From Lachnospiraceae bacterium (lineage in GTDB: Bacteria > Bacillota > Clostridia > Lachnospirales > Lachnospiraceae), in contig JAFVAL010000075.1 of assembly GCA_017480565.1 (NCBI GenBank), positions 1 to 60,308 of the forward strand: a stretch of 60,308 nucleotides of DNA, in the 5' to 3' direction. Below, piece after piece: positions 32,250 to 40,340 of this stretch (position 1 is its first letter; the number at the start of each line of letters is the position of its first letter). The notes beneath the pieces were generated by a model that ran no database searches, was not told the origin of the DNA, and was given only the letters and a program-made list of their open reading frames with translations. The position numbers and the translations under genes were made by a program.

Positions 32250-32372
32250 TTACTCAATATCGTTATCAATATCTTTTATTTTTCTTGCTGGAACACCGCC
32301 GTACAGTGCGTTATCAGCCAAATCTTTTGTTACGACTGCCCCTGCAGCGACCACGACATTATTTCCAATATG
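32250..32372 (-). pseudogene. C-terminal remnant of a hexapeptide acetyltransferase
   Basis: The minus strand reads [18 protein letters not shown], then [11 protein letters not shown], and ends at TAA 32250. This is the last two coils of a left-handed beta-helix (LbH) O-acetyltransferase of the CysE/LacA/NeuD type. An in-frame TAA about 15 codons further upstream and the lack of any N-terminal part show that the gene is truncated. It sits immediately downstream of the sirtuin gene stop (32441). The rest of the gene was probably lost by a deletion or insertion. Confidence 0.72.
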
Positions 32373-32440: not shown

Positions 32441-33382
32441 TTACAGCTTCATCAGGATCTCACGGATGTCTCCGTTGATACAGATGGATCTGTCTATGAT
32501 TTCATCCGGTGCATATGCTTCGCCGTAATTCAGGCAGGCATATGTCGCATCCGGCCACTGGTTTACGATCTTCCAAAACTGGAACTTAATAATACCTGGC
32601 GTATTCATGCCGACTGCCGCTTCCAGGAACAGGATCTTCACATTCTTATGCCTGCGAAGGAATTCTGAATACCTCTCTGCAGCCTGATGCCAGCCTTCAT
32701 CCTCCACGAACTTGTCGTCCGATCTGAGATTCATGGTCATCGGCTCCCCGTCATCCGGGCAGTATGGAATCAGCTCCGTCGGGATCGTCATGGATATCTC
32801 CCTGCCTTCCGGAATGATCAGCTCATTGTTCTCACCGATCTCAAATCCCTGGGCCAGGATCATCTTCCGCATGATCTCTTCGTTCTCATAAGTCTTATGA
32901 GCGGATGCGCCACGCGGATTGGAGCTTTGCAGCAGTCCGTAGTCGCCCTGCGTATAGAAGAGACGCTTCTTGTCAAAGCCGGACCGCTGGAAGCAGTGGT
33001 CCACGTTGGTGGTGATCACGAAGTAGTCCTTGTCCTTCACCAGGTCATAGAGCCGGTCGTAGGTGTCATTTGGGATCGGCATATAGCGGTTAACCCAGAT
33101 GTATCTGCTCCAGTATGCCCACATCTCCTCCGGAGGACTCTCCAGAACGTAGAAACCGCCGGAATACATATCGCTGAAATGATACTTCGCCGCGAAGTCG
33201 AAGAAATACTTCTCGAACCGTTCTCCTGTATAAATGAATCCGGCGGAGGTTGAAAGCCCTGCACCGGCTCCGATCACGATAGCATCCGCTGTATCAATCT
33301 CTTCCTTAAGTCTTTTGATCTGTTCAGCCTTGCTGGCTTTACCGCGGCTTATATTTCTACTGAAATACCTCACAGCACTCAT
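32441..33382 (-). CDS. SirTM-type sirtuin (macrodomain-linked, predicted protein ADP-ribosyltransferase)
   Basis: 313 aa from ATG 33382. NAD-binding motif GAGAGLSTSAGF at residues 38-49 and TTNVDHCFQ at 124-132. Where normal deacetylase sirtuins carry the catalytic His this protein has YTQGDYG (Gln145), the mark of class-M sirtuins (SirTM), which ADP-ribosylate proteins rather than deacetylate. The canonical four zinc Cys are reduced (CPDDGEP only). A Zn-macrodomain gene, the usual eraser partner, lies 0.9 kb upstream. The ribosome site abuts the ATG, and a GTG nine bases later is a possible start. The frame is open upstream, fusing it to an alcohol-dehydrogenase-like remnant. Confidence 0.82.
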   Translation of the reverse strand: MSAVRYFSRNISRGKASKAEQIKRLKEEIDTADAIVIGAGAGLSTSAGFIYTGERFEKYFFDFAAKYHFSDMYSGGFYVLESPPEEMWAYWSRYIWVNRYMPIPNDTYDRLYDLVKDKDYFVITTNVDHCFQRSGFDKKRLFYTQGDYGLLQSSNPRGASAHKTYENEEIMRKMILAQGFEIGENNELIIPEGREISMTIPTELIPYCPDDGEPMTMNLRSDDKFVEDEGWHQAAERYSEFLRRHKNVKILFLEAAVGMNTPGIIKFQFWKIVNQWPDATYACLNYGEAYAPDEIIDRSICINGDIREILMKL

Positions 33383-33445
33383 CCCTTTCTCGATTGTTTT
33401 GCTATAACCGTTGGGCTGCTTGTTTCCGGTGTCCTTCCCTTTCCG

Positions 33446-33679
33446 ATTTAAGATCTTCCCGTTCACTTTCCCTTCATCAAGGGCGATACAGGCCTCGCGG
33501 ATATTCTCAAAATCGTAAACCGCCCCTGTCAGCGGCTTCAGCTGATGTTCATCCATAAAGCTGAAGATATCCTGCATCATCTTTACGGTCGGATAGTTGC
33601 TATAAAACCCGGTCAGGCACACGCCGTTCGGGATATCCTTGATGGGATCGAAATGATTCCATTCCTCGTCAGGCTTGTT
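33446..33679 (-). pseudogene. C-terminal piece of a zinc-type alcohol dehydrogenase/quinone reductase, in frame with the sirtuin
   Basis: About 78 codons whose translation (FDPIKDIPNGVCLTGFYSNY, then FSFMDEHQLKPLTGAVYDFE, then ACIALDEGKVNGKIL) matches the last quarter of MDR-family NAD(P)H:quinone reductases. The nucleotide-binding domain and the N-terminus are absent. There is no stop between this piece and the sirtuin, so a 441-codon frame results. No good ribosome site precedes an internal Met of this piece. I take it as a truncated gene brought in front of the sirtuin, but a translated fusion cannot be ruled out. Confidence 0.6.
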
Positions 33680-33699
33680 GAATCGACATCTTATCCGGC

Positions 33700-33717
33700 G
33701 TGCAATTACGATTGCAC
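33700..33717. promoter_or_regulatory. Inverted repeat just after the predicted transcription start
   Basis: GTGCAAT-TACG-ATTGCAC, 7-bp arms, 20 bases downstream of the -10 of the sirtuin promoter. Operator or leader hairpin. An ATG at 33719 could start a 16-codon leader peptide, but AGAGG is directly adjacent to it, so translation is doubtful. Confidence 0.45.
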
Positions 33718-33737
33718 ATCCTCTGATGAACTTGTTT

Positions 33738-33766
33738 ATTATACTCAAAGTTCCTTGATTTTTCAA
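33738..33766 (-). promoter_or_regulatory. Promoter upstream of the MDR-remnant/sirtuin frame
   Basis: TTGAAA, 17 bases, TATAAT on the minus strand. The -35 lies inside an 8-bp-arm inverted repeat (TTCCTTGA/TCAAGGAA, 33751-33770), which may also terminate the remnant frame upstream. Confidence 0.7.
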
Positions 33767-33772
33767 GGAAAA

Positions 33773-33949
33773 TCAGAACCTGTCCATATTATCCTGAGAT
33801 GCGATCTGGGCATGAGGCTCCTCATTATAACTGATATCCTCCAACAGTTCTAACGAAAAAGAATCCAGCGCAGAAGCCTCCGGATCTTCCGCTTTTCTGT
33901 ATCGAATCTTTTCTGCAAAAAGTACCAGCTCCTTATCAAGGAATTCCTT
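33773..33949 (-). pseudogene. Unrecognised C-terminal gene remnant
   Basis: 58 codons open between a stop and TGA 33773, with no ATG near the front and acidic composition (e.g. AEKIRYRKAEDPEASALDSF, then LELLEDISYNEEPHAQIASQ). It looks like real protein sequence but I do not recognise the family. A hairpin directly follows its stop. It is the only content of the 270-base gap between the sirtuin promoter and the ribbon-helix-helix gene apart from promoter elements. Confidence 0.4.
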
Positions 33950-34039
33950 TTATTGTCATTATTTCTGGATATAGTCGCATGTCCGAAAATGAGCTATACT
34001 CTATTTGTGTGAAAACATGACCGTAAAGGAGATGCTGAA

Positions 34040-34261
34040 ATGGCTGATAAAAAGGATTCCCGCCACGGAACCCTCACAGAGGCTCGCAAGGCGGCCAATA
34101 AACGTTATATTGATAAGTTCGTAGAGGTGAAGGTCAGAATGACTCCTGAGCGCCGCACAGAGGTTCAGCAGAATGCTCAGGATATGAATGAAAGCACCAC
34201 TGCCTTCATCAACAGAACGATCGATGAAACGATGAAGCGCGACAGCAAGAAAAGTAAATAA
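34040..34261 (+). CDS. Small ribbon-helix-helix/Arc-like protein
   Basis: 73 aa, basic. The central part (KFVEVKVRMTPERRTEVQQN, then ESTTAFINRTIDETMKR) has the strand-helix-helix pattern of Arc/MetJ-type DNA-binding proteins, often antitoxins or plasmid regulators. AAAGGAG lies 8 bases before the ATG, and TATACT around 34000 is a likely -10. It lies on the opposite strand between the Zn-macrodomain and sirtuin genes and has its own terminator. Whether it regulates them is unknown. No toxin-sized partner lies next to it. Confidence 0.7.
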   Translation: MADKKDSRHGTLTEARKAANKRYIDKFVEVKVRMTPERRTEVQQNAQDMNESTTAFINRTIDETMKRDSKKSK

Positions 34262-34262
34262 G

Positions 34263-34301
34263 AAAAACGGCAGATCAGGTTCATCCCTCTCAGCCGTTTT
34301 T
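34263..34301. terminator. Bidirectional terminator between the RHH gene and the macrodomain gene
   Basis: AAAAACGGC ... GCCGTTTTT with an inner AGG/CCT stem, between two convergent stops (34261 and 34311). Confidence 0.88.
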
Positions 34302-34310
34302 ACGTTTTGT

Positions 34311-35048
34311 TTATTTCAGAAGATTTTTGTAAAACAGATAATCGATATCTTTGAACACATTGAAGATCACCTTAATCCTGCTTCCAGTCGAATCCAGATA
34401 ATCCTTAACTGTCTTGACGGCGATCTCAGCTGCCCTCTCATTCGGGAACATAAATACACCTGTAGAGATACAACAGAATGCAACACTTGACAGTTCATTC
34501 TCTTCAGCCAACTTAAGAATTGACCGATAACATGATGCCAGATCTTCTTCGTTCTGTTTCGTCAGTCTGTGCTGCACGATAGGGCCGACGGTATGGATGA
34601 TATGCTTTGCAGGAAGGTTAAATGCCGGTGTGATCTTTGCCTGTCCTGTCGGTTCCGGAAAGCCCTGCTTCTCGATAATGTCATTACAGCAGAGTCTGAG
34701 CTCGATACCGGCCTTTGAACCTAAAATGTTATCCAAACACGAATGCAGCCATTGATAGCAGCCAGTGAATCCCGAATTTGCAGGATTAACCACCGCATCC
34801 ACCGCAAGTCTGGACATATCACCTTGCCAAAGATAAATTCTTTCATCTGATTCGATTGGCATAATATCTTCTATCCTTACGATGCCCTCAGCTTCGTTCT
34901 CTGCCGTCAGATATTCATCCTGGATCTTCAGGAATTCGTCGCTGATAGGTTCGGGCATACGGATATTCATAAGTCCTCGGAGCAGATCCTTCTGTTCCTT
35001 TTCATCGGAAGGAATCTTTATGTCGGATGCATCTGACCTTTCTGCCAA
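34311..35048 (-). CDS. Zn-macrodomain protein-ADP-ribose hydrolase
   Basis: 245 aa counted from a TTG at 35048. The family lead-in DLLRGLMNIRMPEPISDEFL precedes a macrodomain: VVNPANSG at 87-93 and CCISTGVFMFP near 190 bind ADP-ribose. The zinc ligands of Zn-macro enzymes are visible as GCYQWLHSC (Cys97, His102, Cys104). These enzymes remove ADP-ribose from proteins and are encoded beside SirTM sirtuins in Streptococcus, Staphylococcus and others. The start is unclear: an ATG with a plausible ribosome site (35070-35060) reads out of frame and stops after five codons, so a frameshift near 35060 or a non-ATG start must be assumed. Confidence 0.85.
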   Translation of the reverse strand: MAERSDASDIKIPSDEKEQKDLLRGLMNIRMPEPISDEFLKIQDEYLTAENEAEGIVRIEDIMPIESDERIYLWQGDMSRLAVDAVVNPANSGFTGCYQWLHSCLDNILGSKAGIELRLCCNDIIEKQGFPEPTGQAKITPAFNLPAKHIIHTVGPIVQHRLTKQNEEDLASCYRSILKLAEENELSSVAFCCISTGVFMFPNERAAEIAVKTVKDYLDSTGSRIKVIFNVFKDIDYLFYKNLLK

Positions 35049-35079
35049 TAACTGTTCAATCAGCCATATTCATTGCTCT

Positions 35080-35310
35080 TCATGTGTCATTTATATCAAT
35101 TCCCTTCTGTCCGGCTAATTCTTTCAGCCGTACATACTTTTCCCGATTCGGATGATGATTATTGATCCCCGCTTCCCATATGGATACAGTGCTTCGGCTC
35201 GATCCAACCAACTCTGCAAATTTCACCTGACTCAGTTCATATGCATTTCTGATTAAGCAGATCCTTTTGCCATACCCCGGCTTGCAGAACCTTGTGTATT
35301 CATCCAGCAA
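35080..35310 (-). CDS. XRE-family helix-turn-helix regulator
   Basis: About 76 aa or slightly more. HTH of the Xre/Cro type: ICLIRNAYELSQVKFAELVG, then SSRSTVSIWEAG. The given start is a TTG only two bases after GGAGG. Sensible coding (NEILEIDPEELLDEY) continues upstream of it to a TAA with no ATG, GTG or TTG at a good distance from the ribosome site GAAAGGA; the codon there is ATA. The start codon may be mutated or unusual. It precedes the Zn-macrodomain gene by about 30 bases on the same strand and is the likely local regulator. Confidence 0.7.
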   Translation of the reverse strand: MLDEYTRFCKPGYGKRICLIRNAYELSQVKFAELVGSSRSTVSIWEAGINNHHPNREKYVRLKELAGQKGIDINDT

Positions 35311-37137: not shown

Positions 37138-38199
37138 TCATTGACTGTCAGCCCTGACATAGAAGGTGCTCCTTCCTGAACCCTGCCGGAATATTTTTCC
37201 TTCTTCTGTCAGTTTTTTTAATGCTGCCAGCGCTGATGACCTTCCTATACTCGGGCAATGAGCAACAACATCAGCACCAGTAAACTTTCCGATTTTTTCT
37301 TCTGTATATCTCTTTACAATGTCATATGCTGTACTGCCCGATCCGCTTTCAGACATTAATCCAACACGCTCCTCAAACTCCGTATAGCAGGCCAGAATTG
37401 CCTGCAGCATATATCTTATAAATGGAGTCGGATCGTTTTCTTCCTCATGCCATCCTGCATCTGATTCCTCAAGCGTATCGTAGTATCGATCCTTTGTTTT
37501 CTCTATCTGCTTTTCGATACTGATATATTTTCCAACGCTATAACCGTTTTTATACAATAAGAGCAATGTCAGCAGTCTGCTCATTCTCCCGTTGCCATCA
37601 TTGAACGGATGGATGCAAAGAAAATCGCAGATAAATGTCGGAATCAATATCAAAGAATCTATTTTCTCATTTGCTATAGCCTGTTCATAAGCGTTGCATA
37701 AATTCTCCACAGCTTCCGGTGTGTCATAAGGCGAGATAGGTGTGAATCTGGTAACTACCGATCCATCAGGCTTTGTTTCGTTGATATAGTTCTGAACATT
37801 CTTAAAATGTCCACCATAAGAAAAGCCGGCCCTCTTTAAAAGATCGCGATGAAGCTGCAATATGTAAGAAGGACGAATTGGAATATATTCATTGCTCTCA
37901 TGAATTGTATTCAGCACATCCCTGTAGCCCATGATTTCATCCTCATCACGGTTTCTGGGCGTTGTCTTTTCTTCAAACAACTGTTTCATGCGAGTACTTG
38001 TCGTAACGATCCCCTCGATTTTGTTGGAAGCTTCTGTACTCTGTATCTTTGCTATCTCGACTAAACGATCAAGTTCTACCGGCTTCTGCCGGATGAACAA
38101 ATCCTGTCTTCCTTTGCATTCATGAATCTTTGCAACAAGATTTAGTATATCAGTGTCCCAGGCCTTTTCTACAAGCCTGCTATAGTCAAACGATCTCAT
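37138..38199 (-). CDS. Fic-domain protein with inhibitory motif and C-terminal winged helix
   Basis: 353 aa. Fic motif HPFNDGNGRMSR at residues 197-208, the complete active site for AMP (or other nucleotide) transfer. The inhibitory helix motif (S/T)xxxE(G/N) is present before it as SNKIEG at 58-63, so this is a class II Fic protein whose Glu62 blocks the ATP site. The C-terminal 80 residues form a winged-helix domain (IGKFTGADVVAHCPSIGRSS, then KKLTEEGKIFRQ) that could bind DNA. GGAGC precedes ATG 38199. The gene is flanked on both sides by copies of one operator array, pointing to autoregulation. The target protein is unknown. Confidence 0.9.
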   Translation of the reverse strand: MRSFDYSRLVEKAWDTDILNLVAKIHECKGRQDLFIRQKPVELDRLVEIAKIQSTEASNKIEGIVTTSTRMKQLFEEKTTPRNRDEDEIMGYRDVLNTIHESNEYIPIRPSYILQLHRDLLKRAGFSYGGHFKNVQNYINETKPDGSVVTRFTPISPYDTPEAVENLCNAYEQAIANEKIDSLILIPTFICDFLCIHPFNDGNGRMSRLLTLLLLYKNGYSVGKYISIEKQIEKTKDRYYDTLEESDAGWHEEENDPTPFIRYMLQAILACYTEFEERVGLMSESGSGSTAYDIVKRYTEEKIGKFTGADVVAHCPSIGRSSALAALKKLTEEGKIFRQGSGRSTFYVRADSQ

Positions 38200-39131: not shown

Positions 39132-40340
39132 TCACGAATCTTCTTGGGTTTCTTTCTTCTGCAGCGTGAGCTTGTACTCTTCTTCGGCAATCTCTACCTG
39201 CTGCTGGATCTGCTCCGCTGTAGGCAGGTATTCCTGTATCTCCTTTATTTTCACATTATCATATGTCGCCACGCCCATCGGAGTCGTGATTCCCTGAAAC
39301 GCTAATTGAACCTCGGTGCGATCCATATCTTTGCAAATCAGAAGTCCGATCGTCGGATTGTCGCTATCCCTTCGGATGAATTCATTGACGGCATTTACAT
39401 AGAAATTCAGCTTCCCAGCGAACTCCGGGTCAAAAGGCTTAACCTTTAATTCCAACACAACATAGCACCGCAAATAAATATGGTAGAACAGCAAATCAAG
39501 CTTTCTGGTTTTCCCGGATACGACGATCTCCTTCTGCCTTCCGACAAAAGCCCAGCCTTCGCCAAGTTCGAGCAGGAATCTGGTCATTCTCTGCTCAATG
39601 GCAGTTTCCAGTGCTTCCTCATCGTATTCTTCTGGAAGAGATACAAAGCCGAGATCATAATTCCCCTTTAACAGTTCTTGCGCAAGTTTCCCTTGTGGAA
39701 CCGGAAGCTGCTGATCAAAATTTGTAATTGCAGTACCCACCGAATGGTACATGTCAGCACGGATGATGTTATCAAGAGCATTTCGACTCAAACCATCTTC
39801 AACTGTCTTTTTAATATAAAACAACGCTTCTTCGATTGTTTCACATTTTTGAACGATAAGAACATGGTGCATCCAAGGAACAAACGCAAAAACTGAAGGA
39901 AAGAGCAATTCTGAATCAAGCTGCTTCAGTTTTGGCTCTTGAATTACTGAAGCAACTTGCTTCAGTTTTAAGCTGCTTGTATCGATTTGATTTTCCAAAT
40001 CCGAAATTAGATGGGCTGTTTCGCCTGCTGAAGCGTAAAATATATACCACTGCTTCATGAACCATAAATTGCGAGCGGAGAATCCTTTTGCTTTCGGAAA
40101 TTCGGCTTGAAGATCAAGACTAACCTGCTCGACGATTCCGCTGCCCCATTTTTCCTCTATTTTACGAGTGGCAAGGTCTCTACCAAGCTGCCAATTGAAA
40201 AGAAGTTGTTCGGAATTCACTTTTACCGCAGCTTTTATTTGGGCATTGCGAAAACGCTGCTTAATATCGTGTATCCACTGCGCATATTCCTTGTCAAGCG
40301 TAATATCGTGAGAGCTGACTGCTCTTGGTTTTTCACTCAT
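39132..40340 (-). CDS. DUF1016/YhcG-type PD-(D/E)XK nuclease domain protein
   Basis: 402 aa. The N-terminal DUF1016 helical domain (residues 15-190: LLFNWQLGRDLATRKIEEKW, FSARNLWFMKQWYIFY, WMHHVLIVQK) precedes a PD-(D/E)XK nuclease domain with KLDLLFYHIYLRCYVVLELK near 285-305 (D...ExK). YhcG-type proteins are found in defence islands and near restriction systems; their role is not established. Strong AGGAGG before ATG 40340. A truncated XRE regulator lies directly upstream and RlmD-like tails lie on both sides, so the pair behaves like one cassette. One in-frame TGA separates it from the DMFP tail downstream. Confidence 0.88.
   Translation of the reverse strand: MSEKPRAVSSHDITLDKEYAQWIHDIKQRFRNAQIKAAVKVNSEQLLFNWQLGRDLATRKIEEKWGSGIVEQVSLDLQAEFPKAKGFSARNLWFMKQWYIFYASAGETAHLISDLENQIDTSSLKLKQVASVIQEPKLKQLDSELLFPSVFAFVPWMHHVLIVQKCETIEEALFYIKKTVEDGLSRNALDNIIRADMYHSVGTAITNFDQQLPVPQGKLAQELLKGNYDLGFVSLPEEYDEEALETAIEQRMTRFLLELGEGWAFVGRQKEIVVSGKTRKLDLLFYHIYLRCYVVLELKVKPFDPEFAGKLNFYVNAVNEFIRRDSDNPTIGLLICKDMDRTEVQLAFQGITTPMGVATYDNVKIKEIQEYLPTAEQIQQQVEIAEEEYKLTLQKKETQEDS

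What the first reader, a model, noticed from the sequence alone, without database searches (positions are those of the whole stretch)
32441..35310. Reduced SirTM/Zn-macrodomain module with XRE and ribbon-helix-helix regulators but no lipoylation partners
A sirtuin with Gln instead of the catalytic His (YTQGDYG) and a Zn-macrodomain protein (GCYQWLHSC) lie 0.9 kb apart on the same strand. In known SirTM loci the pair is encoded with GcvH-L and LplA2 and modifies lipoylated GcvH-L. Neither is in this 60-kb window. Instead the pair comes with an XRE regulator, a small RHH protein on the opposite strand and a remnant of an MDR quinone reductase. This suggests a module acting on another target, or serving as a toxin/defence switch inside an accessory island.
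Basis: partly seen in the sequence, partly recalled or inferred. Interest (0 to 1): 0.82.

Follow-up and report, generated by a model that had tools for sequence, protein, structure and literature searches.

The report
Rearranged sirtuin–macrodomain ADP-ribosylation pair
This bacterium carries a scrambled copy of a known enzyme pair that adds and removes ADP-ribose, and intact relatives of the pair often sit beside genes that make a small cysteine-rich modified peptide, which offers a first candidate for what such pairs act on.

Summary
In detail: the window encodes a true class M sirtuin (SirTM; nearest structure 5a3a, Gln at the catalytic position) and a true zinc macrodomain, with no GcvH-L or LplA2. 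Lone SirTM/Zn-Macro pairs have been in print since 2015, Lachnospiraceae included, so that alone is not new. The XRE and RHH genes are not partners: 234 related loci gave one weak XRE hit and no RHH hit. The window copy is rearranged: the SirTM frame is fused to the 3' end of an oxidoreductase (MDR) gene, its N-terminus and core match two different SirTM lineages, and the macrodomain frame has an early in-frame stop. The MDR piece points to the new result. Its nearest match (94% in protein) lies in an 'ACGX' cluster: HxlR regulator, Cys-repeat peptide, radical SAM/SPASM enzyme, flavin oxidoreductases. Such clusters carry a SirTM within 4.3 kb at 33 of 55 places in the family and at 12 of 16 above-cut-off places elsewhere in the class. 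My paper searches listed nothing on this link. Best reading: a relic of a redox operon in which the pair probably acts on the radical-SAM-modified peptide or its redox partners (inferred). No ACGX radical SAM gene was found in this genome.

The parts
32441..33382 (-). SirTM from the internal ATG (313 aa); Asn126, Asp128 and Gln145 of the active site present; three of four zinc cysteines absent
   Evidence: AlphaFold2 model pLDDT 87.3, best PDB match 5a3a; dN/dS 0.07-0.12 over residues 157-441 of P0001 against L216-L221
32373..33299 (-). stretch 88-94% identical in DNA to the last SirTM gene (SirTM-B) of named relatives L216-L221, plus 68 bp behind the stop
33300..33451 (-). N-terminal SirTM stretch of the other lineage (SirTM-A type, PNGY...)
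   Evidence: read by eye against relatives' N-termini
33452..33664 (-). 3' fragment of an MDR (zinc-type dehydrogenase/quinone reductase) gene of the kind found mostly in ACGX clusters, fused in frame to the SirTM
34311..35048 (-). Zn-Macro open frame (TTG start); the start used by relatives would be ATG 35090, with an in-frame TGA at 35072-35070
34040..34261 (+). small RHH-like protein lying between the pair; not conserved there, probably an insertion
   Evidence: sub-threshold; 4 of 97 other genomes
35080..35310 (-). XRE/HTH_3 protein; overlaps the macrodomain start 35090 by 11 nt; not conserved beside SirTM
   Evidence: (0 of 97 other genomes)

Best explanation
SHOWN: the window holds a class M sirtuin and a zinc macrodomain, by homology a writer and an eraser of ADP-ribose, in a locus that looks rebuilt by recombination. 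The SirTM joins an N-terminus of one lineage to a core of another, behind the end of an MDR gene of the kind found mostly in ACGX clusters. In many intact relatives the pair lies in an operon-like array: divergent HxlR regulator (the one tested resembles redox regulator RrpB, below cut-off), ACGX Cys-repeat peptide, radical SAM/SPASM enzyme (TIGR04340), then MDR, nitroreductase and/or a PNPOx-ferredoxin protein, then Zn-Macro, then SirTM. A second redox context has an Rrf2 regulator instead. INFERRED: the regulator opens the operon under redox or electrophile stress. The radical SAM enzyme modifies the cysteine repeats, and the flavin/ferredoxin proteins exchange electrons with them. SirTM ADP-ribosylates the modified peptide (on its Asp/Glu beside the Cys, or on Cys) or a redox partner, and Zn-Macro removes it. 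This parallels lipoyl-GcvH-L, where the target also carries a sulfur redox group. In this genome no ACGX radical SAM gene was found, so the window pair is most simply a relic whose cis target was lost; if still active it works on something else. My odds: anatomy and relic origin about 0.75; peptide or partner as target about 0.35.
For: Family. MDR fragment: 20 matches in other genomes at E 1e-12, 15 of them beside an rSAM_ACGX gene (searches compared), the nearest (94%) among these; all 8 MDR-bearing loci among 100 SirTM loci have rSAM_ACGX. Link: 33 of 55 rSAM_ACGX places in 397 family genomes have a SirTM within 4.3 kb, 31 of 33 on the same strand; 12 of 16 above-cut-off places in 391 class genomes, each with Zn-Macro, and 0 of 3 sub-cut-off places, which also lack an ACGX peptide. 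Of 53 ACGX genomes 48 have a SirTM match, against 149 of 344 without ACGX (p 2e-11, counts read by me). The ACGX label changes at least 29 times on the SirTM tree. ACGX peptide found in 61 of 68 rSAM loci. Rearrangement. Own genome has no rSAM_ACGX at E 1e-20.
Against: Most SirTM-matching genomes (149 of 197) have no ACGX cluster, so the peptide cannot be the only target. 22 of 55 family ACGX places have no SirTM nearby (5 of them cut by a contig end within 2 kb), and 4 of 16 in the class (one near a contig end). Five of the 20 MDR matches lie away from rSAM_ACGX (G135 at 87%, G315, G057, G132, G258) and were not studied. The nearest relatives of the window SirTM also occur with Rrf2 (L218, L219); only L217, at a contig start, has ACGX-type genes. 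The window macrodomain is not especially close to ACGX ones: its best identities (65%) are L056 and L058, both with Rrf2. The SirTM core is under purifying selection, which fits a working gene as well as a recent relic. No biochemistry was done.
Confidence: 0.6

Rival explanations
1. Co-regulation only: the pair shares a redox-responsive operon with the ACGX genes but acts on another protein, for example a flavin oxidoreductase of the operon or a housekeeping enzyme.
For: The pair also occurs with Rrf2, PNPOx-Fer4, NmrA and DUF1848 without ACGX; 25 of 100 SirTM loci have only the macrodomain nearby among the genes tested.
Against: ACGX genomes nearly all keep a SirTM match (48 of 53) and the order peptide-rSAM-oxidoreductase-Macro-SirTM recurs in several families.
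Confidence: 0.3
2. A working lone module with its own XRE and RHH regulators, acting on an unknown host target.
For: Purifying selection on the SirTM core; the XRE frame overlaps the macrodomain start by 11 nt, as in a co-transcribed gene.
Against: Early stop in the macrodomain frame; XRE and RHH not found beside SirTM elsewhere except one weak XRE hit; MDR fusion.
Confidence: 0.15
3. Decayed GcvH-L/LplA2 extended operon.
For: Homology of the pair to that operon's SirTM and Zn-Macro.
Against: GcvH 0 of 234 and LplA 0 of 234 related loci, with the own copies found as positive controls; own GcvH and LplA lie together on C50, away from the window.
Confidence: 0.03
4. Toxin-antitoxin or anti-phage switch.
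For: A Fic protein and a YhcG-type nuclease lie 2-5 kb away; one relative has an AbiEii-type gene between macrodomain and SirTM.
Against: No PADLOC match for SirTM or macrodomain; recurrent neighbours are redox genes.
Confidence: 0.05

Closest known systems
Lone SirTM/Zn-Macro operons (Rack et al. 2015, PMC4518038; Ariza et al. 2024, PMC11490716; passages and outlines read)
   Same: Sirtuin with QG in place of HG, linked zinc macrodomain, no GcvH-L or LplA2; Lachnospiraceae named as carriers
   Different: Window copy is chimeric, zinc-cysteine-poor, MDR-fused and has an early stop in the macrodomain frame; the passages I read do not mention ACGX clusters
Extended SirTM operon of S. aureus/S. 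pyogenes (GcvH-L, LplA2, OYE, LLM)
   Same: SirTM plus Zn-Macro beside a sulfur-bearing small carrier and flavin oxidoreductases
   Different: Carrier in ACGX operons would be a radical-SAM-modified Cys-repeat peptide (inferred), not lipoyl-GcvH-L; regulators HxlR or Rrf2
ACGX system of NCBIfam (TIGR04340 radical SAM/SPASM, TIGR04341 ACGX-repeat peptide)
   Same: MDR fragment of the window is of the kind found mostly in this cluster
   Different: No ACGX peptide or radical SAM gene in the window; no radical SAM match in the genome

Membership tests
Class M sirtuin (SirTM) | QG in place of the catalytic HG | tested here: met
   YTQGDYG; Gln in 198 of 199 aligned frames, window included
Class M sirtuin (SirTM) | Closer to SirTM than to deacylases | tested here: met
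   5a3a E 1.3e-52 by sequence; by fold 5a3a E 1e-26 first, best non-SirTM sirtuin E 1.2e-9; deacylase models far below cut-off
Class M sirtuin (SirTM) | Genetic linkage to a macrodomain of the zinc subclass | tested here: met
   same strand, 0.54 kb frame to frame; macrodomain near SirTM in 74 of 100 relatives
Class M sirtuin (SirTM) | NAD-dependent ADP-ribosyltransferase activity | not testable with these tools
   needs biochemistry
Zinc-cysteine branch of SirTM (as in SpySirTM) | four zinc-ligand cysteines (positions taken by me from the SpySirTM sequence motifs, not from the structure) | tested here: not met
   window S,S,C,D; CCCC in 151 of 199 frames; the lacking ones form one clade
Zn-Macro | GCx4HxC zinc loop and family score | tested here: met
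   NF003163 329.2 of 272 bits; pattern found in 134 of 139 macrodomain frames, GCHC in each of the 134
Zn-Macro | intact reading frame from the start used by relatives | tested here: not met
   in-frame TGA at codon 7; start at TTG 35048 remains possible
GcvH-L/LplA2 extended operon | adjacent GcvH-L and LplA2 | tested here: not met
ACGX cluster | rSAM_ACGX and ACGX-repeat peptide | tested here: not met
   own genome no rSAM_ACGX at 1e-20; window no peptide with three ACG motifs, only an MDR relic
Toxin-antitoxin/defence system | match to known defence models | tested here: not met
   SirTM, macrodomain and RHH no PADLOC match; XRE matches there are low-scoring helix-turn-helix stretches

The most novel reading that the evidence does not exclude
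SirTM/Zn-Macro pairs of Clostridia write and erase ADP-ribose on a radical-SAM-modified, cysteine-repeat (ACGX) peptide that serves as a redox carrier: a reversible ADP-ribosyl switch on a ribosomal peptide product, the counterpart of lipoyl-GcvH-L. Several SirTM lineages, including a branch without the zinc cysteines, were recruited to it.
Probability: 0.3. Interest if true: 0.87.

Novelty: new variant of a known kind. Interest (0 to 1): 0.62.

Why it matters
PMC11490716 states that the targets of SirTM/Zn-Macro systems outside the extended operon remain elusive. The recurrent ACGX linkage names a concrete, small, testable candidate and suggests a common theme: ADP-ribosylation of carriers that hold sulfur redox groups. 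It also offers a possible role for the ACGX peptides, on which my searches listed no paper.

Tried and rejected
GcvH-L/LplA2 relic: rejected by neighbourhood search (the first LplA query picked the dihydrolipoyl dehydrogenase frame by mistake, giving two irrelevant hits, and was replaced). XRE/RHH as module members: rejected; the one weak XRE hit (L253, 37% over 57 residues, just upstream of its macrodomain) was looked at and no XRE gene of 70 aa or more was listed there. A mobile SirTM cassette: L216-L219 share stretches of 2-12 kb around and behind SirTM-B, so they look like one chromosomal locus in related genomes rather than a mobile unit. ACGX peptides of SirTM-linked and unlinked clusters: listed, no difference seen by eye, not tested. 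Correction: the SirTM search used the MDR-fused frame, so I judged two genomes (G065, G209) to be counted through MDR alone because their E-values equal those; one search's first Fisher test (50 of 53) is replaced (48 of 53; 47 of 53 at E 1e-39; genome counts read by me from the tables). Weak matches may include other Sir2 proteins. Of the first 105 non-own places listed I fetched 100, best first; the five left out (G091, G171, G367, G036, G162) are frames with internal stops, so decayed and weak SirTMs are under-represented. The SirTM tree is a FastTree with 81 of 191 inner branches under 80 support, and its columns included the zinc-cysteine positions. Paper searches: SirTM+macrodomain; ACGX (41: none; 58: 14 papers hold the word, the 10 listed concern other things, 4 not seen; 59: none); sirtuin with RiPP or radical SAM (42: 12 listed, none relevant; 76: 193 papers hold three of four terms, 15 listed, the top ones lacking radical SAM); a reference on radical SAM target peptides (77, listing only, not opened); SirTM+Lachnospir (98).
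Full report
1. What is there. The frame 32441-33766 (-) is 441 aa. Its residues from about 149 match S. pyogenes SirTM (5a3a, E 1.3e-52) and the fungal macrodomain-SirTM fusion 8rsn. Deacylase models score far below their cut-offs. AlphaFold2 on the 313 aa from the internal ATG gives mean pLDDT 87.3, pTM 0.84, and the best solved structure is 5a3a (TM 0.79/0.86), then 8rsn, then ordinary sirtuins. The Asn, Asp and Gln of the active site are kept. The macrodomain frame 34311-35048 (-) is above the cut-off of the protein-ADP-ribose hydrolase model NF003163 and closest to Zn-Macro structures.

2. What the genome lacks. One GcvH match and one LplA-family match lie on contig C50, the GcvH between gcvT- and gcvP-like genes. 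Besides the window SirTM, the search found an internally deleted SirTM remnant on C42 and a faint match of ordinary kind on C54 (E 0.08). Three further macrodomains over the cut-off exist elsewhere in the genome. There is no rSAM_ACGX at E 1e-20. The genome is listed as 98.76% complete in 76 contigs, so absence is not absolute.

3. The copy is rearranged. Window 33452-33664 is the end of an MDR gene, 86-89% identical in DNA to MDRs of L250, L259 and L090 and 94% in protein to one of G325, reading in frame into the SirTM. Window 33299-32373 is 88-94% identical to the last SirTM (SirTM-B) of L216-L221, which in L216-L219 follows another SirTM in tandem. The 50 residues before it resemble the first SirTM type (SirTM-A, PNGY). 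I read this as recombination between tandem copies; L033 shows another A/B mixture by eye. These relatives are metagenome assemblies, so misassembly is possible in single cases. The macrodomain frame has a TGA at codon 7 counted from the start that relatives use. A start at TTG 35048 would still cover the macro domain; a sequencing error cannot be excluded. Residues 157-441 of the SirTM frame show dN/dS 0.07-0.12 against six relatives (L216-L221) and 0.17 against the more distant L222.

4. Neighbourhood survey. 100 SirTM loci were fetched from the 397 same-family genomes searched. Within 6 kb (tblastn at least 60 bits): macrodomain 74, HxlR 38, PNPOx-Fer4 33, radical SAM 23, Rrf2 20, nitroreductase 13, NmrA 9, MDR 8; at least one of the redox-type genes in 68; only the macrodomain in 25; none of these genes in 7. 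A peptide with three or more ACG motifs lay within 7 kb of 16. Radical SAM and Rrf2 never occurred together in these 100, though they do in L178. In 80 further loci of named records: macrodomain 59, HxlR 25, radical SAM 13, nitroreductase 13, PNPOx-Fer4 10, MDR 6, Rrf2 5; any redox-type gene 37. GcvH 0, LplA 0, RHH 0 and XRE one weak hit in 234 loci.

5. The ACGX link. The radical SAM enzyme (one tested, L126) is TIGR04340 'rSAM_ACGX' (583.5 bits, cut-off 400) and the small peptide (one tested, from L112) is TIGR04341 'target_ACGX' (71.3 bits, cut-off 28). The HxlR protein tested is nearest to redox regulator RrpB, and the Rrf2 protein tested has HypR second after the Rrf2 superfamily model, all below cut-off. 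Order in intact loci: HxlR divergent, peptide, radical SAM, MDR/nitroreductase/PNPOx-Fer4, Zn-Macro, SirTM, for example L126, L281, L276 and L298. The peptide was found in 61 of 68 radical SAM loci. Starting from the radical SAM gene, 53 of 397 family genomes have it, at 55 places; 33 of the 55 have a SirTM within 4.3 kb, 31 of these on the same strand; 22 do not, 5 of them cut by a contig end within 2 kb. By my rough arithmetic chance would give about one in a hundred. In 391 genomes of the class, 18 have a match at 19 places, all outside the window's family: 12 of the 16 above cut-off have SirTM and Zn-Macro within 4 kb, 4 do not (one at a contig end), and the 3 below cut-off have neither SirTM nor an ACGX peptide. 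At genome level 48 of 53 ACGX genomes have a SirTM match against 149 of 344 others (odds ratio 12.6, p 2e-11; strict threshold 47 of 53 against 129 of 344, p 8e-13). Genomes are related, so these p-values overstate independence. On a tree of 194 SirTM rows the ACGX label changes at least 29 times (47 labelled of 192; mean of 50 shuffles 42, lowest 37), so the link was gained or lost many times while keeping some inheritance. That favours a functional tie over one inherited accident.

6. The window's own tie to ACGX clusters is the MDR fragment: of its 20 matches in other genomes, 15 lie beside an rSAM_ACGX gene and 5 do not (searches compared). The window macrodomain gives no such hint; its nearest relatives among the 100 loci (65%) are in Rrf2 loci.

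7. A zinc-poor SirTM branch. The four cysteines that I take as zinc ligands are complete in 151 of 199 SirTM frames; the window has Ser, Ser, Cys, Asp. The lacking ones form one clade (one change on the tree).

8. Literature. PMC4518038 (passages and outline read) describes independent SirTM/macrodomain operons and names Lachnospiraceae. PMC11490716 (passages and outline read) says that targets of such pairs remain elusive and that Zn-Macros of lone pairs do not demodify GcvH-L. Searches for ACGX and for sirtuins with RiPPs or radical SAM listed nothing on this link; only open-licence PMC papers are held, so subscription papers could hold it.

9. Mechanism. Shown: homology, order, recurrence. 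Inferred: the regulator senses redox stress; the radical SAM enzyme modifies the Cys repeats; SirTM marks the modified peptide or a redox partner; Zn-Macro erases. PMC11490716 also mentions an observed ability of Zn-Macros to cleave ADP-ribose from cysteine, which would suit a Cys-rich target. In the window the pair has lost these neighbours and is most simply a relic.

Noticed in passing
L216 7283-9500, L217 1933-3845, L218 9992-11907, L219 9950-11862: Tandem SirTM genes; five SirTM frames that precede a SirTM-B (two of them in L216, one of these much shortened) end in the same unusual C-terminal tail (VFYVLNPIRP...), which replaces the normal C-terminus.
   Followed up: partly
L205 (own genome C42) 930-1110: Remnant of a second SirTM with most of its middle deleted.
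   Followed up: partly
L056 8005-9506: An AbiEii-type nucleotidyltransferase gene and a partner without Pfam match lie between Zn-Macro and SirTM, so insertions between the pair are not unique to the window.
   Followed up: partly
25 loci, e.g. L253 9939-10868: A DUF1848 relative (CxxxCxxC-like motif by eye) within 4 kb of SirTM in 25 of 215 loci.
   Followed up: partly
window 32250-32369 (-): C-terminal remnant that looks like a hexapeptide acetyltransferase (weak Hexapep match) right behind the SirTM; another sign of a patchwork region.
   Followed up: partly
window 37138-38199 and 39132-40340 (-): Fic protein and YhcG-type PDDEXK nuclease near the pair.
   Followed up: no
P0001 and L033 6869-7801: Pfam-A gave no sirtuin match for these two SirTMs, so Pfam-based surveys may miss them.
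   Followed up: no
L185 4549-11371: Three SirTM-like frames, one Zn-Macro, ACGX peptide and radical SAM in one locus.
   Followed up: no
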